Shown here: positions 9,541-64,000 of the stretch, piece after piece
Layout of the letters: every line of letters starts with the position of its first letter
Numbering within the stretch: the stretch's first letter is position 1
DNA from: Anadara kagoshimensis
Lineage: Eukaryota; Mollusca; Bivalvia; Arcoida; Arcidae
Assembly: GCA_021292105.1 (NCBI GenBank)
Contig: CM037870.1
Span: 8,281,558-8,345,557 of the forward strand
Length of the DNA stretch: 64,000 bases
Reading direction: 5' to 3'
The notes under the pieces: generated by a model
Databases searched by the model: none
Told to the model about the DNA's origin: nothing
Seen by the model: the letters and a program-made list of their open reading frames with translations, nothing else
Made by a program: the position numbers and the translations under genes

Positions 9541-10104
9541 ACTATAACAAGCAATCATAATGTGCTAATACAGTAATACTGCCAACTTTATCAAGTTGAG
9601 TGGTTTCCAGGTAGATAAATTTGAGTATTTATCTTTATATTGGTAGTCACAATATTGTTGATAAGTATAATGTCTCAGTATCTAAAATGGATATATAATG
9701 TCCAATAGTTTTTTCATTCCCAATTTTGATTACACATGTGATGGGAATAGATGGCTAAACATAAGCTGCTTACCCTTCCAGAGCACTCAGCCTCACTTCC
9801 CTGGTGGAAGATCACATATTAAACCTGATTTGCCAGCTTCGAAGTTTTTACTTTGGGATTGTGGTTTGGCTATGGATTTGTATGTTTAAATTTTTCATTG
9901 GTTGCCATGATAAATAATTCTGTTTAATTTAATCCTAACCTTTTAAAAGGAAACTGAATTAATCCTATTGTATATCTCGTTACGGTGCTTTTTTTTCATC
10001 TGTAAACATTTGTAAATTGTGAATATTTAAATAGTCTTAAGTAATGTTGATGTTATATCTTTTTATTTTAGGATAATGAGTCAGAAGCAGAAGACGACAA
10101 CTGA
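3..10104 (+). CDS. TNF-receptor-superfamily-like type I membrane receptor, 5' part missing
   Basis: Exons as read: 3-106 (partial), 641-822, 1775-1841, 4392-4480, 5971-6645, 9303-9430, 10072-10104. All junctions are GT-AG and phases agree, giving about 425 visible residues. The first two exons encode a cysteine-rich repeat with TNFR-type spacing (C, CxxC, a GYF-type core, then CxP, C and C). A Thr/Ser-rich stalk follows, with several N-glycosylation sequons (NKT, NTS, NVT, NSS). Exon 4 encodes about 22 hydrophobic residues (IILIIVIFALLILAIVVLVI) followed by CCKKR, a transmembrane helix with a basic stop-transfer. The cytoplasmic tail of about 280 residues is acidic and Ser-rich. It contains YDP, YNP and IYDQ tyrosines and one SQEE match to the known TRAF2-type [PSAT]x[QE]E consensus. 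No death domain is recognisable. The family call rests mainly on one cysteine-rich repeat plus the topology; another cysteine-rich receptor class is possible. Confidence 0.62.
870..965 (-). repeat. tRNA-derived SINE head, degenerate
   Basis: The minus strand reads like a tRNA 5' half: an A-box-like stretch (TAGATTAGTTGGTAGAGC) and a decayed B box (GGTCCTGGGTTTACGTCC). It lies in intron 2 of the receptor gene. A related head sits at 53370-53460, sharing the AGGTCCTGG stretch. There is no acceptor-stem pairing, so it is not a functional tRNA. Confidence 0.5.
1169..1653. mobile_element. Foldback MITE, 485 bp, arms about 145 bp
   Basis: The left arm (from ACTACTGTAGGAAC at 1169 to about 1308) is the reverse complement of the right arm (about 1508 to 1653), with scattered mismatches. 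The inner part of both arms reads CTTACTTGTACCTAGTCGTA and continues to TGTATGCGCATCC. It lies in intron 2 of the receptor gene. A fragment of the same arm recurs near 46165-46215. Confidence 0.75.
1860..2420 (+). repeat. Decayed, internally repeated segment related to the hairpin-ended elements
   Basis: Two diverged copies of a segment (about 1985-2115 and 2210-2310) share TTTGTGAAATTTG, GAAAAATG and TGTGTTAAATTTTGACAA blocks. The same segment is found inside the hairpin-ended elements at 10880-11000 and, inverted, at 52930-53060. This is probably an old relic of that family, in intron 3 of the receptor gene. Confidence 0.5.
3055..4289 (+). repeat. Tandem duplication, period 699 bp
   Basis: Positions 3055-3536 and 3754-4235 (482 bp) are almost identical, including a CCCCCCGACCAGCACTGCCG stretch and a (GA)n run. 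The 3' flank after each copy is also related. A recent local duplication within intron 3 of the receptor gene. Confidence 0.85.
4533..4722 (+). repeat. Minisatellite, about 85-bp unit, 2.2 copies
   Basis: ACAATAAACCCATGTAATAT starts near 4535 and 4620, and a third partial unit starts near 4706. The linking text TTATGATTTGACCATACAAT is also shared. It lies just downstream of the transmembrane exon. Confidence 0.7.
6640..6662 (+). promoter_or_regulatory. Weak splice donor followed by an in-frame stop (alternative 3' end of the receptor)
   Basis: Exon 5 can end at 6645 on a weak GTAATT donor, in phase 1. That matches the phase of exon 6, and the joined codon reads ATG (Met). If the donor is skipped, the frame stops at TAG 6660-6662 after five more residues (SNYIL). 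The receptor could therefore have two tails: a short one, and one extended by 53 residues through exons 6 and 7. Both are predictions without transcript evidence. Confidence 0.45.
6758..8462 (+). mobile_element. Hairpin-ended interspersed element, copy 1 (141-bp core type)
   Basis: The left end is TTTTTAGCTCAC with a small hairpin (AGCTCACATGAGCT). The right end is CAGGTGAGCG, then AAGGCCCATGGGCCT (palindrome), then CTTGTT. Between them lie a GTCGTC-rich stretch, a CATCTCCTCTGAAAC segment and a tandem-repeat core. There is no coding capacity. The architecture (terminal hairpins, tandem core, no transposase) fits non-autonomous Helentron-associated elements or the 'pearl'-like families of bivalves; the class is an inference. 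It lies in the receptor intron between exons 5 and 6. Confidence 0.65.
7135..8200 (+). repeat. Tandem-repeat core of hairpin-ended copy 1
   Basis: About eight units with a period near 141 bp (one short unit near 7385). Each carries AACTATAAACTTTTTGTAT, an AGGCATGTATATT stretch, and most also GGTTCAAAGGTCAAGGTCAT, a cluster of AGGTCA half-sites. Confidence 0.85.
9240..9270 (+). repeat. (CA)n microsatellite upstream of receptor exon 6
   Basis: A CA run ends 32 bp before the exon 6 acceptor AG at 9301-9302. Together with the CT run after the exon it brackets a small exon. Confidence 0.9.
9498..9537 (+). repeat. (CT)n microsatellite downstream of receptor exon 6
   Basis: A run of about 20 CT units starting 68 bp after the exon 6 donor (GTATGT at 9431). 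Confidence 0.9.
9743..9890 (-). repeat. FB foldback element, single-arm fragment
   Basis: Contains CTTACCCTTCCAGAGCAC, CTCACTTCCCTGGTGGAAG and GAAGTTTTTACTTTGGGATT, in the order of the right arm of the full FB element at 54890-55446. It lies in the last receptor intron, the only FB copy found outside the dehydrogenase/satellite half of the window. Confidence 0.7.
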
Positions 10105-28228: not shown

Positions 28229-28455
28229 TCAAAAACAAACATACTAATCTATGTCGGAATCACAATCCAGAAGCAAAGTAAAAACTTTGAACTGACAAAT
28301 TAGGTTAGACACGTGAACTTCCACCAGGGAAGTGAGGCCGGGTGCTCCGGAAGGGTAAGCACCTCCTGTTTAGCTAGCTACACCAGCCACGTGTGTAATC
28401 AAAATTGTGTGAAAGGAACATGGAACTATGAGACGTCAAATATATCCAGGGCAGA
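28229..28455 (+). repeat. FB foldback element, left-arm fragment
   Basis: Contains AAAAACAAACATACTAATC, GAGGCCGGGTGCTCCGGAAG, TTTAGCTAGCTACACC and GGAACATGGAACTATG in the same order as the left arm of the full FB copy. It lies 270 bp downstream of the 3' end of dehydrogenase copy A. Confidence 0.8.
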
Positions 28456-33401: not shown

Positions 33402-33701
33402 TTTTAATTAACAGATTCAGAGATGTGTATCATATTTTATGTTTTCACAATCTACCCTCTATTTTGAACTGATTAACAAGATTAGTTTTAATATAGGTCG
33501 ACAAAATCATAGATAAAAATATATGTAGAACAAATACAGCCTATTTAAGATGACATTTAGAATTAGATAAATCTTGAATATCGCAGGCGGTAGATCGGAA
33601 AACTTATTTTTAAAAATAAATATACCATTCCTAGGAAATATATTTTTACAATAATGTATGAAATTGTTGAAAATTTAAACAAGTTTATAAAAAAACATAA
33701 A

Positions 33702-33958
33702 AATCCATGTCCGAATTAAAATTCGTGAAAAAGTGAAAAAGTAAAAACTTTGGAACTGACAAATCAGGTTAGACAAGTGAACATCCACCAGGGAAGTGAG
33801 GCCGGGTGCTCCGGAAGGGTAAACACTTCATGTTTAGCTAGCTACACCCACAACGTGTGTAATCAAAGTTGTGTAAAAGGAACATGGAACTTGGGGACGT
33901 CAAACATATCCAGGGTAATCCTGGACACAGAGACATCAAATTTATCAACAATACTGTA
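33702..33958 (+). repeat. FB foldback element, left-arm fragment
   Basis: GAGGCCGGGTGCTCCGGAAG, TTTAGCTAGCTACACCC, GGAACATGGAACTTGGG and ATATCCAGGGTAAT lie in FB order. Confidence 0.8.
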
Positions 33959-34847
33959 GTGACGGCCATAAATCTGATTCTACATCAATTGACCTATATA
34001 CTTCCGTCGAACGCAATTGGAAAGGGTGTTTGCTAGCCTACACTAGTTGCATTGGTACAAGCATAATGGACCGAGTGGTCTATTTATCAGCGACATTTCT
34101 CGACAAGTGTGCTAGCACTCTAAATGTCATAAAGTATGGCGACATTTGTACACAACAGATTAAAAATACTCGCACAGATCGCATGCATAACTGATAGCGT
34201 TCAGTCTTTTTCGCGAAAAAGTGAACAACTTCTGGTGTAAAGCAGCATGCACCCGACCAAAAAATCATAATCTTCTCAGTTTCAATTTTATATAATTATT
34301 TTAATGTCACTCTATATTCATTTCTGTTGAATTCGTGACTATGATGTGTTTTGTTTACAACTGAGTGAAACCTTTCCAAGAACAGTCACGTGTCCGTTTT
34401 CTGCATGGATGTCAGTACATTATTATTCCTATGTTTAGCAAAATGTATAGCAATATACTTCCAGATATTGGACTCTAACAGATAAACTAACAGATACACA
34501 TGAGATCGAACTTATGATATTTTATAAAAGGACAACTAATTCAACCAGTATGCTCGTCTATATATAGAATAGAATTGGGAACGGGGTTAAATGCCGAACA
34601 AGGCGGTTTTTCTGGGATAGAGTTAAGTTGGAATGTGGATTTAATTTTTCATCAATAATGTGTTTTAAAAAACGAAGGGATGTGTAAGAGGCGGGGTGCT
34701 AGCGCAGATGTAGACGTCGAGGGTCAAACAAAAGCTTCTTTTTTTGTTCTTCGTGAAGACAAGCTGAAATCGATGTATGAAGGAAAATACAATAGTGCAA
34801 TTTCTATATTATCTTCCTTTCACTCTCAACATGGCATGTGTCGCTAG

Positions 34848-34968: not shown

Positions 34969-36014
34969 TAAAAGACAAAAATTCATTTAAATATTATTTT
35001 ATATATAAACATTATAAGGATAACCGATGTTTATTACAGCTTATTTTTTTTTTTTAATTTTAATGTTTTCTTTGTTGTACTATAACCCACTAAACTACAC
35101 TAAATTATTTGTTCATTCAAATCCGATGACAACTCGTACCTCCAGTTTAAACATTTATTAATCACTTTGTTGGTAATGTTTTATAAGGATTCAATATACC
35201 ATTTGGGTCCATCAAAGATTTAATCTTTTTCATTAATCTAACTGCGGATTTTGATTTTGAGCGATAAATTAATTCTTTCTTTTGTAAACCAAGTCCGTGC
35301 TCTGCACTTATGCTGCCATGACAACTAGAAATCCAATCATAGACATTAGGCTCAACAACATCCATTGCATTCTGTCTGAAGTCAGATGATGTAACATTTA
35401 GATGTAGATTGCCTTCAAAATAAAGATAATTAATATGAAGACAATCTTTAGATTTAAGTACAGTATAATGTTATGTGTCATTTCAGAAAAACTTAGTTAT
35501 AGGCCATTAAATCGACTTTTAGATTGTTATATCTACACAACCTATGCCAGTTTCTGATTAGATTACATATTATTCTAGATACATTTTAACAGCATTAAGT
35601 CGTTTCAAGATATGGAAAATATATACAAATAATATGCACAAAATCGTTAGTTAAAGTCACGACTACCAGCGAAAGACAATTTGAACGGTATGCACTTTTT
35701 ATGTTTCGTCACGTCATCTAATGAGAAACATTGGCAGTATTTTATTTTATATTAATAATTTATCTTAAATGATTTGTGTTAAGATGGTGACTTTCTATAA
35801 GTATGTACAGCAGTACCGAACTGCATTATAAATAACATACATAATTAAATTTAAGGAGAAAATGTTCACAATTTTCTGACGCCATTTCTTTACGATTTTT
35901 TCTTGACTCGTTACAGCATGATTTTGTTTTGAAACGAATTTTTAAAAATGAGTCAAAACATTGTAAATGCTTTATAGTAGTTAATACAGATATATTCAAT
36001 CATATATACACTTG

Positions 36015-36310
36015 GCAGATGTAGCTAACTAAACAGGAAGTATTACCCTTCCGGAGCACCCGACGTCAGATGTTTAACCTAATTTGCCAGTTTCAAAGTT
36101 TTTACTTTCTTTGGAATCCTGGTATAGACATGCATTAGTATGTTTGTTTTTGATATTACATGAAAATATATGATGAGGTACTTGCCCTTCCGGAGCACCC
36201 GACATTACTTCCCTTCAGGAATGTGGTGAGTTTCACTTAATTTTGCAAGGTTTCAAAATTTTTACTTTACTTTCGGGATTGTACTTTGTACTGGTATGTT
36301 TGATAAAAGA
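36015..36310 (-). repeat. Two consecutive FB right-arm fragments (copy B intron 6)
   Basis: CCCTTCCGGAGCACCCGACG near 36047 and CCCTTCCGGAGCACCCGACA near 36185. Each is followed by a TTTCAAAxTTTTTACTTT block and a TAGTATGTTTG or TGGTATGTTTG end. One copy follows the other in the same orientation. Confidence 0.75.
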
Positions 36311-36720: not shown

Positions 36721-38087
36721 GATATTGTAGGGTCTTATCGGGTTTAATGATGTGTCATACTTCATATTTCTTATTCCCTTTATGCCTAATTTACAAAAAG
36801 GCAAACAACAATCGTCGAAGAGAACAATATAAGACAATATAAAATAACCAAACAATAGATTATATGGTAAAAAGAATTAAGACACTGTCACCTAACAAAT
36901 TGTCACGTTCGAGTCTTGTGCAACTAAAACATGTAGAGAAAATCGAACTAAAAGATAAAATTTCATTGCGTTTAAGAATGTTTAAAAGACTAAAACAACA
37001 CATGGATCTTTGTAGGTTCAGTAGCCAAAAGTCCATTTCTAACTAGTCCAGCTTCCATAACACATGACAAGAACCTCTCCAGTTTTTCTTTGTCGTGATC
37101 ATCGTCTGAGCCATAAGTTTCAATTAGAACATAAAAACTATAGTCCCCAATTGGACTGGATAAGTTTAAGTTCTGGTTTAATGCTAGCATACATTCAGAA
37201 TCAAAAACTTCAAATGCTGAGAGAATTTCTGCTAGTTTTCGTTTACTTTCATTCAATATGTCTAATACACTTGAGAAACGGTCACAACCTACGAAAGAAA
37301 AGACAATTAAGAATTATATAAGTATTGCCTTAGGTGGATTTGGTAAAAAAAATCGTCCTGCAACTTGTTTCTCATTTAATATCTTAAAATTTAGATTTCC
37401 GCAATTTTGGTCCGACCACTACTGATAAAGAATTTAAGTTTAGCTATAACTGATACTTGATATTAATATTCAAATTTCTACATGCTGAATTTCACATTGG
37501 AGTTTAAAAAAGAAAAATACAGAAAAAACAACTGGTAGAATGTAAATCATTTAACGTCACAGATTTTTAAGACAAACTTTTTTACGGTGGAAACATCAAC
37601 TTATACGATTCCTATCTATAAAATATTTTCCCCATTTAAACGTTAGAAGGTTAACGTCACAGCCATTTAGTCCTAATTAAGTATGCATAATATTTGTTTC
37701 ACACATGCTCAAAACATAAAAAAGCAAACCTACCTAGAAATGCCACATTTACAGAGTTTGGTTTCTGTGGACATAAAATAGATACAGCAGTAACCACTCC
37801 AAGTGTTCCTTCTGAACCAATAAATAGATGTTTTAAATCATAACCAGTATTATCTTTCCTCAAGGTTGATAAACAATCTAAAACTTCACCATTTGCTAAT
37901 ACCTGTGTGACAAAATATCAATGTTAGTAATAATAGCTGTGTTTCAATTTTTCTTTCGGTTTTTCTTCCATTTCAAAAATAGGTATTCTATATAACCAAA
38001 GTTAACATGACGAAATTAAATTCAAGAAAAAGAATTTATTACATATATTATTTGAATGAGGCATGCTTTGTACATAGTAACAAGATC

Positions 38088-38275
38088 AAAAACAAACATA
38101 CTAATCCATGTCCGAATCACAATCTAGAAGCAAAGTAAAAAATGACATTGATAAGTTAGGTTAGACATGTGAATTTCCCAAAAAAGTGATAAAGTGAGAC
38201 AGGGTGTTCTGGAAGAGTAAGCACCTCCGATTTAGCTAGCTAAACCCCCATGTGTGCTAAAGTATGCGATGTTTC
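38088..38275 (+). repeat. FB left-arm fragment (copy B intron 3)
   Basis: AAAAACAAACATACTAATCC, AATCACAATCTAGAAGCAAA, TTAGGTTAGACATGTGAA and GATTTAGCTAGCTAAACCCC. Confidence 0.75.
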
Positions 38276-39744
38276 ATTTTTTAAAATCCGCATTTTCATT
38301 ATCTTTAATAATTTTGACCATTCTATAAGATTTGCTGTGTCTTGCTTTACTACAAATACTTACCACTTCTAAGCCAAGAACACTTCCATGTAATGAACCA
38401 TATCTCAGAAGTCTGAGACCTCCAGCATTAGTTGCTATGTTACCACCAATATGGCAGCTTCCTTTTGCACCAAGGTCATAGGGCATGGTTAAACTGTATC
38501 CTGACACATGATCTTCTAATGTTTGTAATACACATCCAGCTTGACATACTAACACACCTGTAATTTATAGAGATAAATAATTACAATCTTTGTATGGCTG
38601 TAATCAATAAATTTATTATGATGCACAGTTGCCTTCCTAGTGATGTAATTCAAATTTTTGTTTTACTTTTTTAAAATAAAGTTATTTAAAATTAATGAGA
38701 CATCAACTCATGTTTATTTCGCATCAACATTATCCAATATAAGTGCAAAAATGTGAAACGTGTCATGAAAGACATTAGCGACTCTATTAAAAGAACAAAA
38801 TACAACTGCATATCAGTATCTAAAATGTGTAATGTAGGGAACAAGGAAGCTTGAATTATAAGATTTCTTTTTTGTTTTAAATTAAAAATTATTTAAAGTA
38901 CGCCTTTTGTGTGAAGGTATAATAATACAGATACATAGACGCATATTTTGTTGCCATTTATATACATTTGAGAAAAATGAAAAGTAAGAAATAAGGAAAA
39001 ATACAAATTAATTTTGTTCAAAATTGATATCAAATACAGGTATTACTTAGAATTTAATTATCTTAATAAATGATATTCGTTTTAAGATGCCAGAAGTGAC
39101 TTCTAACCTGAAAGATCGTCAAGGCTGATAATTTTGTTCATCAACTGTGTAGACAGAATAACCTCGTCAAATACAGGTACATTCCCTCCGACCAGACCTG
39201 TGCTACCACCTTGGGGAACCACAGCAATCTTTCTCTCGTTACAATACTTTAATATGGCTGACACCTCCTCTGTAGTCTTTGGGCGCAAAACAACCTGACT
39301 CATTCCTATAGTTATACAAATATATTTGTATATTACTTATATTTTAGTTTAATTCTACAACTACTTGCCTTGCTCCTAAAATTCCAAAGTCCAATCATTT
39401 ATAACAATAGTAATACCGGTCTCATTAAAATTTCTATCTATGTACATGTATAATGCAGTTGAAACTGAATCTAGGAATATATATATAATACACCTAGATT
39501 ATAACAACAATCAAATAAACATTCAGATCTATTTAAAATCTGAAACTCGTAATAGCCGTCTAGACTCGCTTAACGGAAACTGAAACTAAATTTAATCTAG
39601 ACATATTTCAATTTCATCAATGTATAATAGAATATACTTATACTCGAAATGATTTGCATACGTTCTGGAAATAAAATAAAAACAAAAAGTCCAGTTTTAT
39701 TAACTAATACTGTAACTACACTTCCAATACACAAAGAATAAAAA

Positions 39745-39965
39745 ACAAACAAACCGATATATGTCCAAATCTCAATCCAAAGCAAAGTAAAACTTTGAAA
39801 CTTAAATTAAGATGAACTGTTAGTTGAAGTGCGCTTCAAACAGGGGAGTGTGGTTGAGTGCTGCAGAAGGTAGGTAAGCGCCTCTGTTTAGCTAGCTGTA
39901 TCAGACATGTAAGTGAAAGGAAGGTGAAAGTATGGAACATCAAATACTAATATATCCAGGGTAAT
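39745..39965 (+). repeat. FB left-arm fragment (copy B intron 1)
   Basis: AACAAACCGATATATGTCC, CAATCCAAAGCAAAGTAAAA, TGTTTAGCTAGCTGTATC and ATATCCAGGGTAATTTTG. Confidence 0.7.
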
Positions 39966-40604
39966 TTTGAAATGGGAAACAAGCTGTGGATGGAGTTAAT
40001 AGTTAGTTAAATTCAAATACAAATGCATTTACCTTTATATATTTTGAGCCAGTCTGTAACACTAATGAATCATTTAATACACGACCTGGTATGATCTTTT
40101 CAAACACGTTTAAATCGGAATCGTTCAGAATAGCAAATTGTCCTCTCTTCAAATGTGGGTATCTCTTGCTCGTCAGCTGAACAGTTCAATTGTATCTACT
40201 CAAGCTGAAACATCTTCTGTTGGTTAAATTTAAATTCTTCTTGAGGCAGTTAAGAAAACAATAAACGTCCCTTGATAGTTTTTGATACTTCATAATCGTT
40301 CATAACTTAAAACAAAACAACACTTTCTTTAAACTTTAAAACAAATTACTCCTACATATCGGTTTGTTATGTCTACTGCAAAATCATTACTTCTTTTTGA
40401 CCCTCTTTGGTATAGTGTGGTATGTTCACTGGAGGTTAGGTTAAATCACTAAGACATTTATCTATATAGTACAGAGGTACAAATGGGGGTTCATTTCCTC
40501 GCAAATGTTTATTCCTGATAAAATAACAGCCTAAACCGATCCAAATCTAAAACAAACATACCAGTCATTGTTCAAAAGACAATCCTAAATGTTAACCACA
40601 TACA

Positions 40605-41065
40605 TACCAGTCCATGTCAAAACCACAATCTCAAAAGTAAACTTGAACTGGCAAAAGTACGCCAAACATGTAAATTGAACCAAGGAAATAGGTGTGGTTG
40701 CTCTGGAAGGTGGAAGGGTATATGCCCCCTATCAGGCTTGTGACATCAGACAAGTGTGAAATCCCAAATGAAAATGGAGGGATTTGGAACTATGGGAAGT
40801 GGAATATAATGGAATAATTTTTTATATAGAGGTCATACTTCAGACACACCCAGTTTTACATTCCTGGTTGAATTTTGTGTGTTTTAACTAAATTTGTCAG
40901 TTTTAAAGTTTTTACTTTTTCTTTATTATTTTGATGCTTAACCTACCAGAGCACCCGGCCTCACTTCTCTGGTGGAAGTTCAATTGTTTAACCTAGTTTG
41001 TCAGTTTCAAATGTTTCACTTTGCTTCTAGATTTGATTTGGACATGGATAAGTATGTTTGATTTT
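40605..41065. repeat. FB element, both arms, degenerate
   Basis: The left arm is at about 40605-40800 (CATACCAGTCCATGTC, AACCACAATCTCAAAAGTAA). The right arm is at about 40940-41065 (CAGAGCACCCGGCCTCACTT, TTTAACCTAGTTTGTCAGTT, TTTGCTTCTAGATTTGATTT). The pair looks like one old full-length FB copy. Confidence 0.65.
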
Positions 41066-41503
41066 GACTTGTTTTACATTATTTTGATGGTGGTCATAAT
41101 CTCTTTCAGGTTCTTGATAAGCATAGACTTGCAATATCCCTTGGTTAACAATTTATTTGTATGCACATCTATATTTATTGTTCTTTGGTATTGTACATGG
41201 ATTGCTATATATATATTAGAATATATAACTGTTAATGAAAAGTCATTCAAATTTTCATTGGTGTCTACCAAAACAAAACTGAACTCGTAACATTTCAAAT
41301 TATATTATTAATATATATTATATAGATTATTGTCCTAATGGACTATCACAGTTCATTTAAATTTTTGTAACAAGTTTGACAAACACTATTCTGACTGTAA
41401 CTGATAATATGACTAGACACTACATGTACTGGTTAATATGTTGACATATATTGATTTGATTTTTGGTCCAATGTACATTTTGCTCAGTAAAAGAGGTAGC
41501 TGA

Positions 41504-52900: not shown

Positions 52901-54042
52901 ACCCCATGTCATTATCTGGTCATATAGTCAAGTTATAACAATTTAAAAATATTTTACGATTTTTGCAAATTTAAACGCAAAAACGCGTAACCTATTTTTA
53001 AACCAAATTTCATGAAATGAACAAACGTAAAGGTTAAGACTATGTAGAATCCAAATATCACATCAGTTTTTGCCTCCAATGAGTGGTTCAAGAGAAGAAG
53101 ATTTTTTGAGGTTTTGTCTATTTTTAGTAACAGCGGCCATCTTGGATATTCGATCGTCATGATTTGAACAAACTATAGTTAGACTCTGTCAAGGACCTTC
53201 CATGGCAAATTTGGTTTCATTTGGCCCAGTAGTTTCGGAGGAGAAGATTAAAGTTTACTGACGCACGCACGGACGCACGCACGCACGCCTCGCCATGCCA
53301 TAAGCTCACATGGCCTTTGGCCAGGTGAGCTAAAAATTGAAACTATCATGATTGTCTTTCTGTTGTACAGGAAGGAGAAAAAATGCAGGGTAGGACCAGG
53401 ACCTCCCTCGCTTTAAGCGATTGCTCTACCAACTGAGCTAGTAGTTAAATTCTTCCAGCCTGTTATTTTCTCCGACCTTCTCACATGGGAAACCTCCCCC
53501 AAATTCCCTCAGATTAACTTTATAAGTTTATATGGCCTGCAATATGCCAATCCACCTTCTCTGATGGCCATTCCGGCCAAGAAACTGTAAAGGAAGAAAA
53601 AATGCAGGGATCTCCCGCACTATAGGCAAGTGCTCTACAAACTGAGCTACCCAGACCACGACACTGTACATCCTGAAAATGGCAATATGTATATATATCC
53701 TAACTAACAGAAAGAGATTTAGATTTAAAGAGAGAGAGAGATCAAGGACAAACCTTTGCATGTCTTAAGCCAGTCTGTATTGTATCCATCTAGTTCTGAT
53801 ATGTCTGTTAAGACACGACCTGGCATGATGCTTTCAAACAATTTTAAATCTGCATCATTCAAAGTAGCATATTGTCCTCTCTTCAGATTTGGATACCTCT
53901 TACTCGTCAGTTCAACGTTGCATTTGACTCTACTGGTACTAAACAATCTAGAATAACTTAAATGAAGATTTCCATTTTGATGGTGTCGACAGTGTCGACA
54001 ATATTGTACCAGCTTCTGAAACTGCTGCATTGCAACTGCCAT
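43948..54042 (-). CDS. D2HGDH: D-2-hydroxyglutarate dehydrogenase, mitochondrial, copy C (intact)
   Basis: Exons (minus strand): 53754-54042, 50893-51090, 50229-50422, 46897-47065, 45695-45981, 44744-44915, 43948-44198. Introns are GT-AG, phases fit, and the sum is 1560 bp or 519 aa, the usual family length. The enzyme oxidises D-2-hydroxyglutarate to 2-oxoglutarate with FAD in mitochondria. Seen: a basic, Ser/His-rich N-terminus fitting a transit peptide; [11 protein letters not shown] at 127-137; [18 protein letters not shown] in exon 3; FIGSEGTLG in exon 4; Arg385, Lys400, His433, His440, Asn442, Glu474 and His475. The last set lines up at a constant offset of one with human Arg386, Lys401, His434, His441, Asn443, Glu475 and His476, recalled as active-site/zinc residues. 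Human Thr390 is Ala389. The frame extends upstream of ATG 54040-54042 but only through a TTG. Two hairpin-ended elements in introns 1 and 3 account for most of the extra length relative to A and B. Confidence 0.95.
45217..45354. mobile_element. Small foldback MITE (copy C intron 5)
   Basis: The left end TATACAGCCAGGGTTTTTTG, continuing through CATGTACCCTGTCAA, is mirrored by the right arm ending CAAAACCCTGTATA. Confidence 0.75.
46165..46640. repeat. Composite of inverted repeats (copy C intron 4)
   Basis: 46165-46215 resembles the arm of the 1169-1653 foldback (TAGAAAATCCAATAAACTTG, CTTGTACC). 46234-46363 is a hairpin with arms of about 41 bp (AATAGGGTTATTGAACTGAT-type ends). 46442-46483 is a second hairpin (ATTGCACTAGTTCTTGTAT). 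Confidence 0.65.
47383..49474 (-). mobile_element. Hairpin-ended interspersed element, copy 3 (310-bp core type)
   Basis: Inverted relative to copies 1 and 2. It begins AACAAGAGGCCCAAAAGGGC, then CGCTCACCTGG. It ends in a GACGGACT repeat, GCCATAAGCTCACATGG and CAGGTGAGCTAAAAA (hairpin). The termini match the other copies, but the core is a different tandem repeat. It is inserted in a SINE in intron 3 of dehydrogenase copy C. Confidence 0.75.
47560..49370 (-). repeat. Tandem-repeat core of copy 3, about 310-bp unit, 5-6 copies
   Basis: AAACCCGTTTTATATGTTAA recurs near 47890, 48203, 48512, 48823 and 49134. Each unit also has CAGCCATCTTGGATAAGGGG-like and GGACCTTCCACA blocks. Confidence 0.85.
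50759..50798 (+). repeat. (GAAA)n/(GAAT)n microsatellite
   Basis: AGAAAGAAAG-type repeats pass into AATG repeats; copy C intron 2. Confidence 0.85.
51248..53335 (-). mobile_element. Hairpin-ended interspersed element, copy 4 (141-bp core type)
   Basis: It starts AACAAGAGGCCCAATAGGGC and ends GCCATAAGCTCACATGGCC then CAGGTGAGCTAAAAA, inverted like copy 3. The core matches copies 1 and 2. It lies in intron 1 of dehydrogenase copy C. Confidence 0.75.
51350..52830 (-). repeat. Tandem-repeat core of hairpin-ended copy 4
   Basis: About ten units near 140 bp with TGACCTTGACCTTTGGACC or TGACCTTGACCTTTGAACC (inverted form of the AGGTCA cluster) and CATGCCTATACAAAAAGTT. Confidence 0.85.
53370..53660 (-). 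repeat. Two tRNA-derived SINE heads
   Basis: On the minus strand, ACTAGCTCAGTTGGTAGAGC (about 53430-53450) and GTAGCTCAGTTTGTAGAGC (about 53630-53650) are A-box regions. Each is followed at tRNA spacing by a truncated B-box region. Both are copies in intron 1 of dehydrogenase copy C. Confidence 0.6.
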
Positions 54043-54889
54043 GACTAGCCTACCCAGAAACAAGAGAGTTCAGGACTTCATGAAATATCGGTTAAAAATT
54101 AATTCTAGAGTGTCAGAACGGGTGATTTAGTCAAATGAGACATCAGTCCTGGTTTCTTCTCTGCGTGAAAGATGTGTCAGTGTGTCATTCCTGATAAAAC
54201 TGATAAGAACAGTAACCTTGATTTACGTGAACTAAGAGTACATGGGCGTCGCCATATTCATTTTGTTGCTGTCGGATATAAATCCCTCCTTAACAAGAGC
54301 ACCTGAACAGCTAACTCGGCAGTTGATCACCAGCTAGCTATAGGTACTAAGTTGAAACAGGCACAATTTGCAAGAATGTTGCAATATATAATATTTCCCA
54401 AAATTATTTATCGGATATAAATCAATATCTTTTAAATTATCAACTGGAACAATTAATTTTAGACACCCTTATTAATGACATGATATATACTGCTGGGCAA
54501 AAAAGTACACTACATTTTTTGTTCGATGCTTATTGCAATATAAAACACCTATATATTTAAACATAAAATATTCAACTTTCTTGAAATGAATTCGAAGTCA
54601 CTAGCTTCCACACTAATGCCAACCTGTTAGTCGACCACATCCCATGGGTAAGATAAGCCCCGAAAATGGAACGGGAAATGAACCCTGAAAATGCAGTCGC
54701 CAACAAGGAAACCCGTGGCACCTCCAAATACCAGTGAGAATCGGTTGTCTTAATATACATGCATGGTACACATGTACAGTACATTGTTTTATCACTGCTA
54801 GGGAGCGTCTATTCACCTATGGTGTAGGACACTTTGTGTTTTATATAATGATAATCGCCAGTCATTGAGTTTTACCACTGCTATGACTG
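54043..54889. other. Upstream region of dehydrogenase copy C
   Basis: Presumed promoter side of copy C. No TATA box or other element could be placed. The minus-strand frame at 54572-54784 is open but shows no family features. Confidence 0.35.
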
Positions 54890-55446
54890 AAAAACCAATA
54901 CATGTCCAAATCACAATTCCAAAGAAAAGTTAAAACTTTGAAACTTGCAAATTTGGTTAAACAAGTAAACTGGATGCTTCGGAAAGGTAAGCGCCTTCTG
55001 TTTAGCTAGCTACATCCACCACGTGTCTGATCAAAAATTGGGAATGAAAGAGAAATAGAATTATGGGGCGTCAAATATATACATGGTAATTTTGGATACA
55101 CAGGCATCATACATGTCAACAATATCCCTGGATCAACAATTTAAATCGTTGATCAAGGGATATTGCAACCATAGGCTTATCAGGGCCTTCGAAAATTTTA
55201 GTGGCAGTTATCACAGTATTGTGTCTCTGTGTCCAGGATTGCTCTGGTTATATTTGACGTCCCATAGTTCCATGTTCCTTTCACACTAAATATTGAATAC
55301 ACACGTGGTGGGTGTAGCTAGCTAAACAGTAGGTGCTTACCTTTCCCTTTTGGAAGTTCACATGTTTAACCTAGTTCGTCAGTTTCAACGTTTTTACTTT
55401 GACTTCCGGATTCTGATTTGGGCATGGTTTAGTACGTTTGTTTTTG
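54890..55446. mobile_element. FB foldback element, full length (about 557 bp)
   Basis: Two arms of roughly 260 bp face each other around a palindrome near 55120-55175 (AATATCCCTGGATCAAC / GTTGATCAAGGGATATT). The left arm has CCAATACATGTCCAAATCAC, GAAAAGTTAAAACTTTGAAA, TTTAGCTAGCTACATCC and GGGGCGTCAAATATAT. The right arm mirrors them (TTTGACGTCCCATAG, GGGTGTAGCTAGCTAAACAG, TCAACGTTTTTACTTTGACT, TTAGTACGTTTGTTTTTGAT). It has no coding capacity and is the best template for the FB fragments listed elsewhere. Confidence 0.85.
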
Positions 55447-56214
55447 ATTGCGAAACAAATGCATAATAAGCAGGAAGAAGTGAATATATTGCTGCATAGA
55501 AAAAGAAAGTTGACAGTAGAAATTTTTAACTCATCACATTTTTCACGCAGCATCAAATGTAGCCTTTCCTTGGTGTCATAATTGAGGTGCAAGTCTAAAT
55601 ATGAAGACAGAATTTGTCTAAAATACCTGACATAAAGGAGAGTTTTTCTTATGGTAAAAGATCTAATTGGCGAGGGGATGCCACATTGGAGTTTTGGTTG
55701 CTCAACAGTAACATTATTTTAATAGTAGATGATTACCTTTAACGTCAATGCGACAAAACACAATCATATTTATCCTTTAACTGTTACTGTGTCAAATTAA
55801 AAAGTAAAATGGATTAGATGACCTTAAAGAAAACAGTCGTGAAAAGGTGCAATGCTTTTGATGTTTATGTACACATTAGAAAAATTGTACTAACACTTTT
55901 AGGGGTTCAAGTAAGATACCAGTGTTTTGATCTTCCGACATCTTCTGACCTAGTGTATTAGAAAGGGACTATTTATATCACAGCTCGGTAATCCTTTTTA
56001 GTACTTCAGTGTAGGTACAACATACCATAAATAACCAGAATAAGTGACACGTAGAATTTGCTATGGATGTTGGAGTGGAGTGATTGTATTTTACGCTCCA
56101 GTCAAGATTGTTCTACTTATATTGAAGTCTTTGGGGGTCTTTGGAAGTATGTGCTGAGGTGTTGGTGTTGTTATGGGTCCGTTATTGCACCACTTGTAGT
56201 GTAATCCCATCGAT
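55447..56214. other. Intergenic sequence with an inverted SINE tail
   Basis: No gene. The reverse complement of about 56065-56140 (ATCTTGACTGGAGCGTAAAA) matches the 3' part of the SINE at 14657-14998. Confidence 0.5.
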
Positions 56215-56460
56215 TGTCAAACAATCATGCATAAGGCAGGTGTAGATAGCTAAACAGTTGCTCGTCCTTCCGAAGCATCCGACCTCACTTACCTGGTGGA
56301 TATGTTAAACATTGTTTATTGTCTTTTGTCATATTGAATGATGCAATTTAAAAATGGTATATATGACAGTATCACTTCAAATGTTTGAATCTGACTGTTT
56401 TCAGAGTATTTTCTTTGCTATTGGTATTGTAAATTGACTATGGACCGGTATTCTTTCAAA
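56215..56460 (-). repeat. FB right-arm fragment at the edge of the satellite
   Basis: GGTGTAGATAGCTAAACAGT, TCGTCCTTCCGAAGCATCCG, CCTCACTTACCTGGTGGA and TATGTTAAACATTG are right-arm blocks. They are interrupted by unrelated text before the first satellite-like unit (TTCAAAGTTTTTACTTTGC at about 56455). Confidence 0.65.
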
Positions 56461-59400
56461 GTTTTTACTTTGCTTTTGTGAATGTGTTTTGTTCGTGAAC
56501 CGGTATGTTTGTGTTTGCTTGTTTGCAAAGTTTTTACTTTACTTTTGGGATTGTGATTTGACCATGGACCGGTATGTTTGTGTTTGCTAGTTTCAAAGAT
56601 TTTACTTTGCTTTTGGGGTTGTGATTTGATCATGAACCGGTATGTTTGTGTTTGCTAGTTTCAAAGTTTTTACTTTACCTTTGGGATTGTGATTTGGTAA
56701 TGAACCGATATGTTTGTGTTTGCTTGTTTGCAAAGTTTTTACTTTGCTTTTGGGATTGTGATTTGATCATAAACCGATATGTTTGTGTTTGCTAGTTTCA
56801 AAGTTTTTACTTTACCTTTGGGATTGTGATTTGGTAATGAACCGATATGTTTGTGTTTGCTTGTTTGCAAAGTTTTTACTTTACCTTTGGGATTGTGATT
56901 TGATCATAAACCGGTATGTTTGTGTTTGCTAGTTTCAAAGTTTTTACTTTACCTTTGGGATTGTGATTTGGTAATGAACCGATATGTTTGTGTTTGCTTG
57001 TTTGCAAAGTTTTTACTTTACCTTTGGGATTGTGATTTGATCATAAACCGGTATGTTTGTGTTTGCTAGTTTCGAAGTTTTTACTTTGCTTTTGGGGTTG
57101 TGATTTGGTAATGAACCGGTATGTTTGTGTTTGATTGGTACTTTGGGATTGTGATTTGATCATAAACCGGTATGTTTGTGTTTGATTGGTACTTTGGGAT
57201 TGTGATTTGATCATAAACCGGTATGTTTGTGTTTGCTAGTTTCGAAGTTTTTACTTTGCTTTTGGGGTTGTGATTTGGTAATGAACCGGTATGTTTGTGT
57301 TTGATTGGTACTTTGGGATTGTGATTTGATCATAAACCGGTATGTTTGTGTTTGCTAGTTTCAAAGATTTTACTTTGCTTTTGGGGTTGTGATTTGATCA
57401 TGAACCGGTATGTTTGTGTTTGCTAGTTTCAAAGTTTTTACTTTGCTTTTGGGGTTGTGATTTGATCATGAACCGGTATGTTTGTGTTTGCTAGTTTCGA
57501 AGTTTTTACTTTGCTTTTGGGATTGTGATTTGATCATGAACCGGTATGTTTGTGTTTGATTGGTACTTTGGGATTGTGATTTGATCATAAACCGGTATGT
57601 TTGTGTTTGATTGGTACTTTGGGATTGTGATTTGATCATAAACCGGTATGTTTGTGTTTGCTAGTTTCAAAGATTTTACTTTGCTTTTGGGGTTGTGATT
57701 TGATCATGAACCGGTATGTTTGTGTTTGCTAGTTTCAAAGTTTTTACTTTACCTTTGGGATTGTGATTTGGTAATGAACCGATATGTTTGTGTTTGCTTG
57801 TTTGCAAAGTTTTTACTTTGCTTTTGGGATTGTGATTTGATCATAAACCGATATGTTTGTGTTTGCTTGTTTGCAAAGTTTTTACTTTGCTTTTGGGGTT
57901 GTGATTTGATCATAAACCGGTATGTTTGTGTTTGCTAGTTTCGAAGATTTTACTTTATTTTTGGGATTGTGATTTGATCATGAACCAGTATGTTTGTGTT
58001 TGCTAGTTTCGAAGATTTTACTTTACTTTTGGGGTTGTGATTTGATCATGAACCGATATGTTTGTGTTTGATTGGTACTTTGGGATTGTGATTTGATCAT
58101 AAACCGGTATGTTTGTGTTTGATTGGTACTTTGGGATTGTGATTTGATCATAAACCGGTATGTTTGTGTTTGCTAGTTTCAAAGATTTTACTTTGCTTTT
58201 GGGGTTGTGATTTGATCATAAACCGGTATGTTTGTGTTTGATTGGTACTTTGGGATTGTGATTTGGTAATGAACCGGTATGTTTGTGTTTGATTGGTACT
58301 TTGGGATTGTGATTTGATCATAAACCGGTATGTTTGTGTTTGATTGGTACTTTGGGATTGTGATTTGATCATAAACCGGTATGTTTGTGTTTGCTAGTTT
58401 CAAAGATTTTACTTTGCTTTTGGGGTTGTGATTTGATCATGGACCGGTATGTTTGTGTTTGCTAGTTTCAAAGTTTTTACTTTACCTTTGGGATTGTGAT
58501 TTGATCATAAACCGATATGTTTGTGTTTGCTAGTTTCAAAGTTTTTACTTTACCTTTGGGATTGTGATTTGGTAATGAACCGATATGTTTGTGTTTGCTT
58601 GTTTGCAAAGTTTTTACTTTACCTTTGGGATTGTGATTTGATCATAAACCGGTATGTTTGTGTTTGATTGGTACTTTGGGATTGTGATTTGATCATAAAC
58701 CGATATGTTTGTGTTTGCTAGTTTCAAAGTTTTTACTTTACCTTTGGGATTGTGATTTGGTAATGAACCGATATGTTTGTGTTTGCTTGTTTGCAAAGTT
58801 TTTACTTTACCTTTGGGATTGTGATTTGATCATAAACCGGTATGTTTGTGTTGCTAGTTTCAAAGTTTTTACTTTACCTTTGGGATTGTGATTTGATCAT
58901 AAACCGATATGTTTGTGTTTGCTAGTTTCAAAGTTTTTACTTTACCTTTGGGATTGTGATTTGGTAATGAACCGATATGTTTGTGTTTGCTTGTTTGCAA
59001 AGTTTTTACTTTACCTTTGGGATTGTGATTTGATCATAAACCGGTATGTTTGTGTTTGCTAGTTTCAAAGTTTTTACTTTACCTTTGGGATTGTGATTTG
59101 GTAATGAACCGATATGTTTGTGTTTGCTTGTTTGCAAAGTTTTTACTTTACCTTTGGGATTGTGATTTGATCATAAACCGGTATGTTTGTGTTTGATTGG
59201 TACTTTGGGATTGTGATTTGATCATAAACCGATATGTTTGTGTTTGCTAGTTTCAAAGTTTTTACTTTACCTTTGGGATTGTGATTTGATCATAAACCGG
59301 TATGTTTGTGTTTGCTAGTTTCAAAGTTTTTACTTTACCTTTGGGATTGTGATTTGATCATAAACCGATATGTTTGTGTTTGCTAGTTTCAAAGTTTTTA

Positions 59401-62400
59401 CTTTACCTTTGGGATTGTGATTTGATCATAAACCGGTATGTTTGTGTTTGCTAGTTTCAAAGTTTTTACTTTACCTTTGGGATTGTGATTTGGTAATGAA
59501 CCGATATGTTTGTGTTTGCTTGTTTGCAAAGTTTTTACTTTACCTTTGGGATTGTGATTTGATCATAAACCGGTATGTTTGTGTTTGCTAGTTTCAAAGT
59601 TTTTACTTTACCTTTGGGATTGTGATTTGATCATAAACCGATATGTTTGTGTTTGCTAGTTTCAAAGTTTTTACTTTACCTTTGGGATTGTGATTTGATC
59701 ATAAACCGGTATGTTTGTGTTTGCTAGTTTCAAAGATTTTACTTTACCTTTGGGATTGTGATTTGATCATAAACCGGTATGTTTGTGTTTGCTAGTTTCA
59801 AAGTTTTTACTTTACCTTTGGGATTGTGATTTGGTAATGAACCGATATGTTTGTGTTTGCTTGTTTGCAAAGTTTTTACTTTACCTTTGGGATTGTGATT
59901 TGATCATAAACCGGTATGTTTGTGTTTGCTAGTTTCAAAGTTTTTACTTTACCTTTGGGATTGTGATTTGGTAATGAACCGATATGTTTGTGTTTGCTTG
60001 TTTGCAAAGTTTTTACTTTACCTTTGGGATTGTGATTTGATCATAAACCGGTATGTTTGTGTTTGATTGGTACTTTGGGATTGTGATTTGATCATAAACC
60101 GATATGTTTGTGTTTGCTAGTTTCAAAGTTTTTACTTTACCTTTGGGATTGTGATTTGATCATAAACCGATATGTTTGTGTTTGCTAGTTTCAAAGTTTT
60201 TACTTTACCTTTGGGATTGTGATTTGATCATAAACCGATATGTTTGTGTTTGCTAGTTTCAAAGTTTTTACTTTACCTTTGGGATTGTGATTTGGTAATG
60301 AACCGATATGTTTGTGTTTGCTTGTTTGCAAAGTTTTTACTTTACTTTTGGGATTGTGATTTGGTAATGAACCGGTATGTTTGTGTTTGCTAGTTTCAAA
60401 GTTTTTACTTTACCTTTGGGATTGTGATTTGGTAATGAACCGATATGTTTGTGTTTGCTTGTTTGCAAAGTTTTTACTTTACTTTTGGGATTGTGATTTG
60501 GTAATGGACCGGTATGTTTGTGTTTGCTAGTTTCAAAGTTTTTACTTTGCTTTTGGGGTTGTGATTTGATCATGAACCGGTATGTTTGTGTTTGATTGGT
60601 ACTTTGGGATTGTGATTTGATCATGAACCGGTATGTTTGTGTTTGATTGGTACTTTGGGATTGTGATTTGATCATGAACCGATATGTTTGTGTTTGCTTG
60701 TTTGCAAAGTTTTTACTTTACTTTTGGGATTGTGATTTGGTAATGAACCGGTATGTTTGTGTTTGCTAGTTTCAAAGTTTTTACTTTGCTTTTTGGGATT
60801 GTGATTTGATCATGAACCGGTATGTTTGTGTTTGCTAGTTTCAAAGTTTTTACTTTGCTTTTTGGGATTGTGATTTGATCATGAACCGGTATGTTTGTGT
60901 TTGCTAGTTTCAAAGTTTTTACTTTGCTTTTTGGGATTGTGATTTGATCATGAACCGGTATGTTTGTGTTTGCTAGTTTCAAAGTTTTTACTTTGCTTTT
61001 TGGGATTGTGATTTGATCATGAACCGGTATGTTTGTGTTTGATTGGTACTTTGGGATTGTGATTTGATCATGAACCGGTATGTTTGTGTTTGCTAGTTTC
61101 AAAGATTTTACTTTGCTTTTGGGGTTGTGATTTGATCATGAACCGGTATGTTTGTGTTTGCTAGTTTCAAAGTTTTTACTTTGCTTTTGGGGTTGTGATT
61201 TGGTAATGAACCGGTATGTTTGTGTTTGCTAGTTTCAAAGTTTTTACTTTGCTTTTGGGGTTGTGATTTGGTAATGAACCGGTATGTTTGTGTTTGCTAG
61301 TTTCAAAGTTTTTACTTTGCTTTTGGGGTTGTGATTTGGTAATGAACCGGTATGTTTGTGTTTGCTAGTTTCGAAGTTTTTACTTTGCTTTTGGGGTTGT
61401 GATTTGGTAATGAACCGGTATGTTTGTGTTTGCTAGTTTCAAAGTTTTTACTTTGCGTTTGGGATTGTGATTTGGTAATGAACCGGTATGTTTGTGTTTG
61501 CTAGTTTCAAAGTTTTTACTTTGCGTTTGGGATTGTGATTTGATCATGAACCAGTATGTTTGTGTTTGCTAGTTTCGAAGTTTTTACTTTGCGTTTGGGA
61601 TTGTGATTTGGTAATGAACCGGTATGTTTGTGTTTGCTAGTTTCGAAGTTTTTACTTTGCTTTTGGGGTTGTGATTTGGTAATGAACCGGTATGTTTGTG
61701 TTTGATTGGTACTTTGGGATTGTGATTTGATCATAAACCGGTATGTTTGTGTTTGATTGGTACTTTGGGATTGTGATTTGATCATAAACCGGTATGTTTG
61801 TGTTTGCTAGTTTCGAAGATTTTACTTTGCTTTTGGGGTTGTGATTTGATCATGAACCGGTATGTTTGTGTTTGATTGGTACTTTGGGATTGTGATTTGA
61901 TCATGAACCGGTATGTTTGTGTTTGCTAGTTTCGAAGATTTTACTTTGCTTTTGGGGTTGTGATTTGATCATGAACCGGTATGTTTGTGTTTGATTGGTA
62001 CTTTGGGGTTGTGATTTGATCATAAACCGGTATGTTTGTGTTTGCTAGTTTCGAAGATTTTACTTTACTTTTGGGATTGTGATTTGATCATGAACCGGTA
62101 TGTTTGTGTTTGCTAGTTTCGAAGTTTTTACTTTGCTTTTGGGGTTGTGATTTGGTAATGAACCGGTATGTTTGTGTTTGATTGGTACTTTGGGATTGTG
62201 ATTTGATCATGAACCGGTATGTTTGTGTTTGATTGGTACTTTGGGATTGTGATTTGATCATGAACCGGTATGTTTGTGTTTGCTAGTTTCGAAGATTTTA
62301 CTTTACTTTTGGGATTGTGATTTGATCATGAACCAGTATGTTTGTGTTTGCTAGTTTCGAAGATTTTACTTTACTTTTGGGATTGTGATTTTATCATGAA

Positions 62401-64000
62401 CCAGTATGTTTGTGTTTGCTAGTTTCGAAGATTTACTTTGCTTTTGGGATTGTGATTTGATCATGAACCGATATGTTTGTGTTTGCTAGTTTCGAAGTTT
62501 TTACTTTGCGTTTGGGATTGTGATTTGGTAATGAACCAGTATGTTTGTGTTTGCTAGTTTCAAAGTTTTTACTTTGCGTTTGGGGTTGTGATTTGATCAT
62601 GAACCAGTATGTTTGTGTTTGCTAGTTTCGAAGATTTTACTTTACTTTTGGGATTGTGATTTGATCATGAACCAGTATGTTTGTGTTTGCTAGTTTCGAA
62701 GATTTTACTTTACTTTTGGGATTGTGATTTTATCATGAACCGATATGTTTGTGTTTGCTAGTTTCGAAGTTTTTACTTTGCGTTTGGGATTGTGATTTGG
62801 TAATGAACCGGTATGTTTGTGTTTGCTAGTTTCGAAGATTTTACTTTGCTTTTGGGATTGTGATTTGATCATGAACCGATATGTTTGTGTTTGCTAGTTT
62901 CGAAGTTTTTACTTTGCGTTTGGGATTGTGATTTGGTAATGAACCGGTATGTTTGTGTTTGCTAGTTTCAAAGTTTTTACTTTGCGTTTGGGATTGTCAT
63001 TTGGTAATGAACCGGTATGTTTGTGTTTGCTAGTTTCGAAGTTTTTACTTTATTTTTGGGATTGTGATTTGATCATGAACCAGTATGTTTGTGTTTGCTA
63101 GTTTCAAAGTTTTTACTTTATTTTTGGGATTGTGATTTGATCATGGACCGGTATGTTTGTGTTTGCTAGTTTCAAAGTTTTTACTTTATTTTTGGGGTTG
63201 TGATTTGATCATGAACCAGTATGTTTGTGTTTGCTAGTTTCGAAGATTTTACTTTACTTTTGGGGTTGTGATTTGATCATAAACCGGTATGTTTGTGTTT
63301 GATTGGTACTTTGGGATTGTGATTTGATCATGAACCGGTATGTTTGTGTTTGATTGGTACTTTGGGATTGTGATTTGATCATGAACCGGTATGTTTGTGT
63401 TTGATTGGTACTTTGGGATTGTGATTTGGTAATGAACCGGTATGTTTGTGTTTGATTGGTACTTTGGGATTGTGATTTGATCATGAACCGGTATGTTTGT
63501 GTTTGATTGGTACTTTGGGATTGTGATTTGGTAATGAACCGGTATGTTTGTGTTTGCTAGTTTCAAAGTTTTTACTTTGCGTTTGGGATTGTGATTTGGT
63601 AATGAACCAGTATGTTTGTGTTTGCTAGTTTCAAAGTTTTTACTTTTCTTTTGGGATTGTGATTTGGTAATGAACCGGTATGTTTGTGTTTGCTAGTTTC
63701 AAAGTTTTTACTTTGCTTTTTGGGATTGTGATTTTATCATGAACCAGTATGTTTGTGTTTGCTAGTTTCGAAGATTTTACTTTGCTTTTGGGATTGTGAT
63801 TTGATCATGAACCGATATGTTTGTGTTTGCTAGTTTCAAAGTTTTTACTTTTCTTTTGGGATTGTGATTTGGTAATGAACCGGTATGTTTGTGTTTGCTA
63901 GTTTCAAAGTTTTTACTTTGCTTTTTGGGATTGTGATTTTATCATGAACCAGTATGTTTGTGTTTGCTAGTTTCAAAGTTTTTACTTTTCTTTTGGGATT
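56440..64000 (+). repeat. Satellite array, 68-bp monomer plus 51-bp deletion variant, runs off the window end
   Basis: Head-to-tail units, roughly 115 by estimate. The standard unit (68 or 69 bp) has GCTAGTTTC or GCTTGTTTGC, AAAGTTTTTACTTT, GGGATTGTGATTTG, then ATCATGAACC or GTAATGAACC, then GGTATGTTTGTGTTT. The 51-bp unit (GATTGGTACTTTGGGATTGT) lacks 17 bp of the first half. Blocks differ in variant composition: ACCTTTGGG/CCGATATG units dominate about 58430-60480, near-identical GCTTTTTGGG units lie at about 60770-61030, and TCGAAG units dominate after 61300. The unit corresponds to the outer end of the FB right arm. Open frames on the minus strand are by-products of the repeat. Confidence 0.97.

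What the first reader, a model, noticed from the sequence alone, without database searches (positions are those of the whole stretch)
54890..64000. Satellite array apparently born from the terminus of a foldback transposon
Seen: the satellite monomer (AGTTTCAAAGTTTTTACTTT, then GGGATTGTGATTTG, then a GGTATGTTTGT-type end) has the same blocks in the same order as the outer end of the FB right arm at about 55378-55446 and in FB fragments at 36090-36150, 36250-36305 and 41000-41060. An FB right-arm fragment lies immediately before the array at 56215-56330. Inference: the last 68 bp or so of one FB copy was amplified into a satellite of more than 7.5 kb. TE-derived satellites are known, but here source element, edge fragment and array are visible in one window.
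Basis: partly seen in the sequence, partly recalled or inferred. Interest (0 to 1): 0.78.

Follow-up and report, generated by a model that had tools for sequence, protein, structure and literature searches.

The report
Retroelement tails that seed satellite arrays
The repeat array in this animal genome grew from the tail end of what looks like a Penelope-like jumping gene, whose tail has given rise to similar small repeat arrays at many other places in the same genome, so the birth of satellite-like DNA can be seen at several stages.

Summary
The array is real: window 56388 to about 65841 (past the window end), 145 counted units of 67-69 or 51 bp. Its 68-bp unit matches the 3' tail of a dispersed element (55 of 66 positions; score 75, best of 1000 shuffles 30), and an element body lies about 90 bp before its first, degenerate unit. 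The source is not a foldback transposon. Fetched copies share one end, are truncated at varying points and show no target-site duplication signal; one copy encodes reverse transcriptase related to a 998-aa protein with an N-terminal GIY-YIG-like stretch. It is most likely a Penelope-like element, and the 'foldback' two head-to-head copies. The window's own joint is confined to one locus (94 of 97 hits). But tandem tails occur elsewhere: 2028 exact junctions of one class, 1503 of another, 0 in reversed-pattern controls; 40 loci on one contig. They run from 2 units to spans of about 10 kb. The commonest joint is at a GTTTTT box present twice, 49 bp apart, in the tail. Template jumping at insertion, then DNA-level growth, is my inference, not shown.

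The parts
54894..55139 (-). Left 'arm': 5'-truncated element copy, minus strand, head-to-head with the next one (inner limit approximate)
55143..55449 (+). Right 'arm': 5'-truncated element copy ending in the single tail 55376-55449
55470..55607 (-). Fragment of the element's reading frame (residues 878-923 of relative P0003), tail-to-tail with the right arm
   Evidence: tblastn E 2.7e-06, 50% over 46 aa
56235..56300 (+). Truncated element body near the 5' edge of the array
   Evidence: body positions 355-423, 79.7% identity, E 3.5e-12
56388..56454 (+). First, degenerate tail unit, between body and array
   Evidence: by reading; it lies outside the array-1 group, in a wider group (support 0.57) with 3 tails and 2 array-2 sequences
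56455..64000 (+). Tandem array of 67-69/51-bp tail units; continues outside the window to about 65841 in the same frame
40549..40654 (-). Element tail with two tail-like units about 45 bp apart (possible dimer)
   Evidence: I8, I11; second unit only
40933..41067 (+). Truncated element copy with single tail
36005..36156 (+). Truncated element copy with single tail
36175..36304 (+). Truncated element copy
38086..38256 (-). Truncated element copy
39741..39897 (-). Truncated element copy
28229..28453 (-). Truncated element copy (95% identical to the reference copy L032)
33693..33975 (-). Truncated element copy
9647..9893 (+). Truncated element copy

Best explanation
The array is the over-grown 3' tail of one 5'-truncated copy of a Penelope-like retroelement. 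The element's last ~70 bp can be joined to itself head to tail, giving 2-4 tail units at the end of an insertion. The commonest joint lies where the box GTTTTT occurs both inside the tail and near its very end, 49 bp apart. Most likely the element's reverse transcriptase makes these joints during insertion, by slipping or jumping back to the 3' end of its RNA template. A few seeds later expand by slippage or unequal exchange into arrays spanning up to about 10 kb, of which this window holds one. Shown by sequence: origin from the tail, position between body and 3' end, several independent origins, and the box at the joint. Inferred: the template jump and the expansion step.
For: Unit = tail, far above shuffles. 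Body, then units, then an element-like terminus: array 1; array 2 about 10 kb downstream; C6 with 3 units and C3 with 4. Body before the first unit in 10 of 12 loci, with differing truncation points. 2028 exact GTTTTT-box junctions and 1503 other junctions, 0 in controls; on C1 26 and 15 loci, 1 shared; of the 26, 11 show one junction only. The box spacing is 49 bp; on C1 45 of 66 junction spacings are exactly 49 and 51 of 66 are multiples of 49. Different joints inside one insertion: L088 (three), L076 (two fillers), L084 (49- and 71-bp units). The RT-coding copy L004 runs on into the same untranslated region and tail. PLEs are described with partial tandems, optional tails, head-to-head inverted copies and internal initiation (PMC3846280 passages; PMC11167929 abstract and passages).
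Against: 2 of 12 loci (L074, L079) and L091 show no body beyond the tail. The body match is short at array 2 (25 bp, E 4e-05) and L077 (39 bp, E 1.4e-04), and in the window about 65 bp separate body and first unit more than expected. The 3' edges at L078 and L080 end inside a unit. L072 shows 10 nearly identical 46-bp units after its first tail, which looks like DNA-level amplification. The joint TTTTTGA|CTTCTGG recurs at many loci and may be inherited from one source. A 6-bp repeat would equally favour DNA slippage. The share of all copies with tandem tails was not measured (search did not complete). The GIY-YIG stretch was seen only in a database relative, below Pfam's cut-off.
Confidence: 0.58

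Rival explanations
1. Single-tail insertions are made normally, and tandem units arise afterwards by replication slippage or unequal exchange between the two GTTTTT boxes.
For: The 49-bp unit is exactly the span between the boxes. L072 and L067 carry runs of near-identical units. Array 1 is homogeneous: mean pairwise identity 0.930 among its 79 units of 68 bp.
Against: L088 has three different joints in one short insertion; L076 has two different fillers; L083 and L087 join the 3' end to sites other than the GTTTTT box. One-step slippage does not add filler bases. These loci were chosen for unusual joints, so they do not tell how common such cases are.
Confidence: 0.25
2. One or a few source copies already had tandem tails and passed them on by retrotransposition; many arrays are inherited, not newly made.
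For: The joint TTTTTGA|CTTCTGG is the same at many of the 26 loci, and the box joint at all hits is by definition the same.
Against: About nine joint classes by my reading (three of them similar whole-tail joints); varying unit lengths and numbers; units look alike within a locus (by eye). The window's own joint is essentially at one locus.
Confidence: 0.15
3. A foldback DNA transposon gave the array.
For: Inverted arms at 54894-55449; close head-to-head neighbours also at L005 and L034.
Against: 25 of 27 other loci lack close head-to-head neighbours; one common end with variable truncation and no TSD signal; reverse-transcriptase coding. Head-to-head inverted copies with palindromes are described for PLEs (PMC3846280 passages).
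Confidence: 0.02
4. The element captured pre-existing satellite sequence (reverse direction).
For: None found beyond the shared sequence.
Against: The window's joint is at one locus (94 of 97 hits), single tails are many, and array units form one tail-free group (midpoint root, support 0.79).
Confidence: 0.03

Closest known systems
Penelope-like elements with an N-terminal GIY-YIG endonuclease (Naiad/Chlamys type; this description recalled, the two names seen as PLE categories in PMC10941475, passages)
   Same: Relative P0003 has a GIY-YIG-like stretch (134-220) before an RT stretch (762-848), both below Pfam's cut-offs; 5' truncation; inverted neighbours
   Different: Here the last 46-73 bp, not a whole element or pLTR, are repeated; a copy with the endonuclease part was not seen in this genome
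Penelope/Poseidon elements with pLTR and optional tail (PMC3846280 passages; PMC11167929 abstract and passages)
   Same: Partial tandems, an optional tail extension of about 30-40 bp, RT starting at defined internal sites, head-to-head inverted copies
   Different: The passages read describe tandem elements and optional tails, not arrays spanning kilobases built from the tail; no hammerhead found in the stretches scanned here; the Penelope endonuclease is C-terminal
Tetris / TIR-220 of Drosophila virilis (PMC4079207: abstract and section 19 read)
   Same: Short tandem repeats at the end of a mobile element that became kb-size satellite-like arrays
   Different: Foldback-like DNA transposon with repeats in its inverted repeats; here an RNA-copied element and many seeds
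Helentron-carried satellite-like repeats of Crassostrea gigas (PMC7492417: search listing only)
   Same: Satellite-like arrays dispersed by a mobile element
   Different: Carried by non-autonomous Helentrons; here the array is a retroelement tail
HviSat02-2707 of Harttia catfish, 'related to Penelope elements' (PMC11955569: passages)
   Same: A satellite linked to a PLE
   Different: The name points to a 2.7-kb unit; its origin is not traced to a tail in the passages read

Membership tests
Penelope-like element | RT of PLE type | tested here: inconclusive
   RT relationship met: L004 matches P0003 residues 673-995 (39.5% over 329 aa, E 7.5e-46), continuous with UTR and tail; RVT_1 in P0003 at E 0.0015, below Pfam's cut-off. 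That it is PLE type rests on the GIY-YIG stretch and recalled knowledge; no RT tree was built
Penelope-like element | GIY-YIG endonuclease | tested here: inconclusive
   In relative P0003: PF01541 E 0.00061, 20.5 bits against cut-off 22.6; not seen in this genome (genome search with P0003 did not complete; tblastn of held DNA reached only residues 673 and later)
Penelope-like element | 5' truncation with common 3' end | tested here: met
   copies were found with the tail as query and one search kept only matches reaching it, so the common end is partly by selection, but flanks beyond it differ
Penelope-like element | hammerhead ribozyme motif (many, not all PLEs; recalled) | tested here: not met
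   Rfam scans of window 54000-58500 and 7 loci listed no ribozyme; only 3' parts of copies were available
Naiad/Chlamys subgroup | endonuclease N-terminal to RT | tested here: inconclusive
   Seen in P0003 only
Foldback transposon | two long terminal inverted repeats in each copy | tested here: not met
   Close head-to-head neighbours in 2 of 27 other loci
Foldback or other cut-and-paste DNA transposon | target-site duplication of set length | tested here: not met
   46 copies with distinct flanks: mean longest flank match 4.37 against 4.26 permuted, 41 of 200 permutations as high; the 5' limit came from BLAST and may be off by some bases, which weakens the test
Satellite DNA (genome-wide family) | same monomer in many arrays | tested here: not met
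   Window joint: 94 of 97 genome hits in this one array. The 49-bp box-joint unit, in contrast, recurs at many loci

The most novel reading that the evidence does not exclude
A retroelement acts as a satellite-seeding machine: its reverse transcriptase, guided by a GTTTTT box present twice in the tail, writes 2-4 tandem tail units into new insertions, and some of these hundreds of seeds grow into kilobase arrays.
Probability: 0.45. Interest if true: 0.8.

Novelty: new variant of a known kind. Interest (0 to 1): 0.6.

Why it matters
How the first duplication of a future satellite arises is usually inferred from old arrays. Here one element family offers, in one genome, single tails, 2-3-unit tails and arrays spanning up to about 10 kb, with an apparent built-in microhomology that sets the commonest unit length. 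That makes the seed step and the growth step separately testable. Satellites from mobile elements, including ends of DNA transposons and untranslated regions of LINEs, are already known (PMC12628747, passages), which limits the surprise.

Tried and rejected
Foldback transposon: rejected. Helitron: considered because the fixed end mostly reads A|TC on the other strand and no TSD was seen; rejected because the truncated end shows no matching preference and the element encodes RT. Retrozyme/hammerhead: Rfam gave only microRNA- and snoRNA-like matches below the families' gathering scores. Pfam scan of the C-terminal peptide gave nothing useful. Solved structures: no match to P0003. Share of all tails that are tandem, and a genome search with P0003: not completed. 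Species: not determined.

Literature searches that might have shown a PLE-tail satellite; no listed title or abstract start showed one. Apart from abstracts, passages and one section of a few papers I read nothing, and the library lacks most subscription journals, so this is not a claim that it is unpublished.

Full report
What is there. The window lies at G000:C14:8281558-8345557 of an unnamed 1.115-Gb genome in 36 contigs. The array begins with a degenerate unit at 56388, is regular from 56455, leaves the window and ends at about 65841 in the same frame. It has 145 anchored units: 79 of 68 bp, 28 of 69, 33 of 51 and 5 of 67. The 68-bp units are 93.0% identical on average. Their consensus matches the tail of a dispersed element at 55 of 66 positions; the best of 1000 shuffles scored 30 against 75. 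The 51-bp consensus is a weaker match: it beats the shuffle maximum only against the young-tail consensus.

What the element is. The copies fetched share one end and stop at many different points at the other. They were found with the tail as query, and one search kept only matches reaching it, so the common end is partly selected for; but the flanks beyond it differ. Among 46 copies with distinct flanks there is no target-site duplication signal (copies reaching the full reference length and those near the arrays were left out). Several copies keep a common C-terminal reading frame (by eye), then a stop, then 198 bp to the fixed end in copy L034. A search with 90 residues of it found 2 relatives among 23 candidates; P0003 (998 aa) has a GIY-YIG-like stretch before a reverse-transcriptase stretch, both below Pfam's own cut-offs. 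Copy L004 matches P0003 over residues 673-995 and runs on into the same untranslated region and tail. GIY-YIG with this RT points to Penelope-like elements, and the domain order recalls the Naiad/Chlamys group (recalled; the two names seen in PMC10941475). No RT tree was built. PMC3846280 describes head-to-head inverted copies with palindromes, partial tandems and optional tails (passages). That fits the 'foldback' at 54894-55449, two truncated copies joined head to head. Of 27 other loci, 2 (L005, L034) have head-to-head neighbours within 50 bp; looser inverted pairs, head-to-head or tail-to-tail, are frequent, as expected where copies are dense.

Is it a satellite family? The joint of this array, searched with up to 3 mismatches, occurs 97 times in the genome, 94 of them in this array. 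The other three hits lie at two loci, C6 and C3, each a truncated copy of the element with 3 and 4 tail units, ending at an element-like terminus. A second array of about 46-bp units lies some 10 kb downstream, again between a truncated body and the terminus; its body match is only 25 bp.

How common are tandem tails? A pattern that accepts a spacer of 4-34 bases between two tails gave 1503 exact hits and 0 in reversed controls. A pattern for the young subfamily gave 43 hits at 26 loci on 13 contigs, with about nine kinds of joint by my reading, three of them similar. The exact joint at the GTTTTT box gave 2028 hits and 0 in controls. The long listings stop after about 100 places, so loci could be counted only on C1: 26 loci by the box joint and 15 by the other, one shared, thus 40 on a contig holding about 4.6% of the genome. 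Of the 26, 11 show a single joint; the largest shows 25. Scaling C1 suggests about 560 loci for the box joint alone; this is a rough extrapolation. Patterns are exact, so counts are lower bounds for their classes. The longest span on C1, 13892256-13902832, is that of hits; it was not read through.

Edges. Of the 17 loci listed I fetched stretches at 14, 8 of which show their 5' edge. With C6, C3 and the two C14 arrays, 12 loci show it: 10 carry element body before the first unit in the same orientation, 0 in the opposite one, with different truncation points. Two of the ten matches are short (array 2, 25 bp; L077, 39 bp), and in the window about 65 bp more than expected separate body and first unit. 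L074 and L079 show no body. Of the 26 loci, ten chosen for unusual joints were fetched, so that sample is biased; in the six with a visible 5' edge, five show body by reading and L091 begins within the tail. At L078 and L080 the 3' edge ends inside a unit.

How it may work. In the native tail of L034 GTTTTT occurs twice, 49 bp apart. On C1, 45 of 66 joint spacings are exactly 49 bp and 51 of 66 are multiples of it. Young insertions show few units: L083 and L087 have two, L068, L069 and L076 three. L088 has three different joints in one insertion, L076 two different fillers, and L084 mixes 49- and 71-bp units. Mixed joints and filler bases within one insertion speak for template jumping by the reverse transcriptase at insertion rather than one later slippage. 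PMC11167929 reports that a Penelope-like enzyme starts copying at internal sites of its RNA (abstract and passages). Later growth by exchange or slippage is needed for L072, L067 and the window array. None of this was seen happening; the template jump is inference.

Direction. In a midpoint-rooted tree of 132 short sequences (62 tails), the array-1 units apart from the edge unit form one group without tails (support 0.79); the edge unit falls outside it, in a wider group (support 0.57) with 3 tails and 2 array-2 sequences. Support is modest, as expected for 68 bp.

Verdict. The element is re-identified, the window array is a single-locus one, and the larger finding is that this tail has formed tandem arrays many times in the same genome.

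Noticed in passing
window 7396-8207, 11152-13281, 51376-52808: Three arrays of a 145-bp unit, two on one strand and one on the other, with GACCTTGACCTTTG-type motifs in the last; possibly another element-borne repeat.
   Followed up: no
window 47646-49368: Tandem array of a 312-bp unit, 5.5 copies, 95% matches.
   Followed up: no
window 30506-32569 and 45656-46108, minus strand: Open frames that look like exons of a D-2-hydroxyglutarate dehydrogenase-like gene, with related exons at two places (by eye, name recalled; no search run).
   Followed up: no
L034:2221-3164, L028:2234-4434, window 55143-55607: Element copies followed, in the opposite orientation, by pieces of the element's own reading frame; at L034 and in the window the gap is about 20-30 bp.
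   Followed up: partly
C1:41831101-41835932 and C1:41977351-41980436: Two tail arrays about 146 kb apart with similar units, perhaps a segmental duplication.
   Followed up: no
L026:1563-2935: Three same-strand element copies, two with nearly identical 3' flanks, suggesting a local tandem duplication of the insertion.
   Followed up: no
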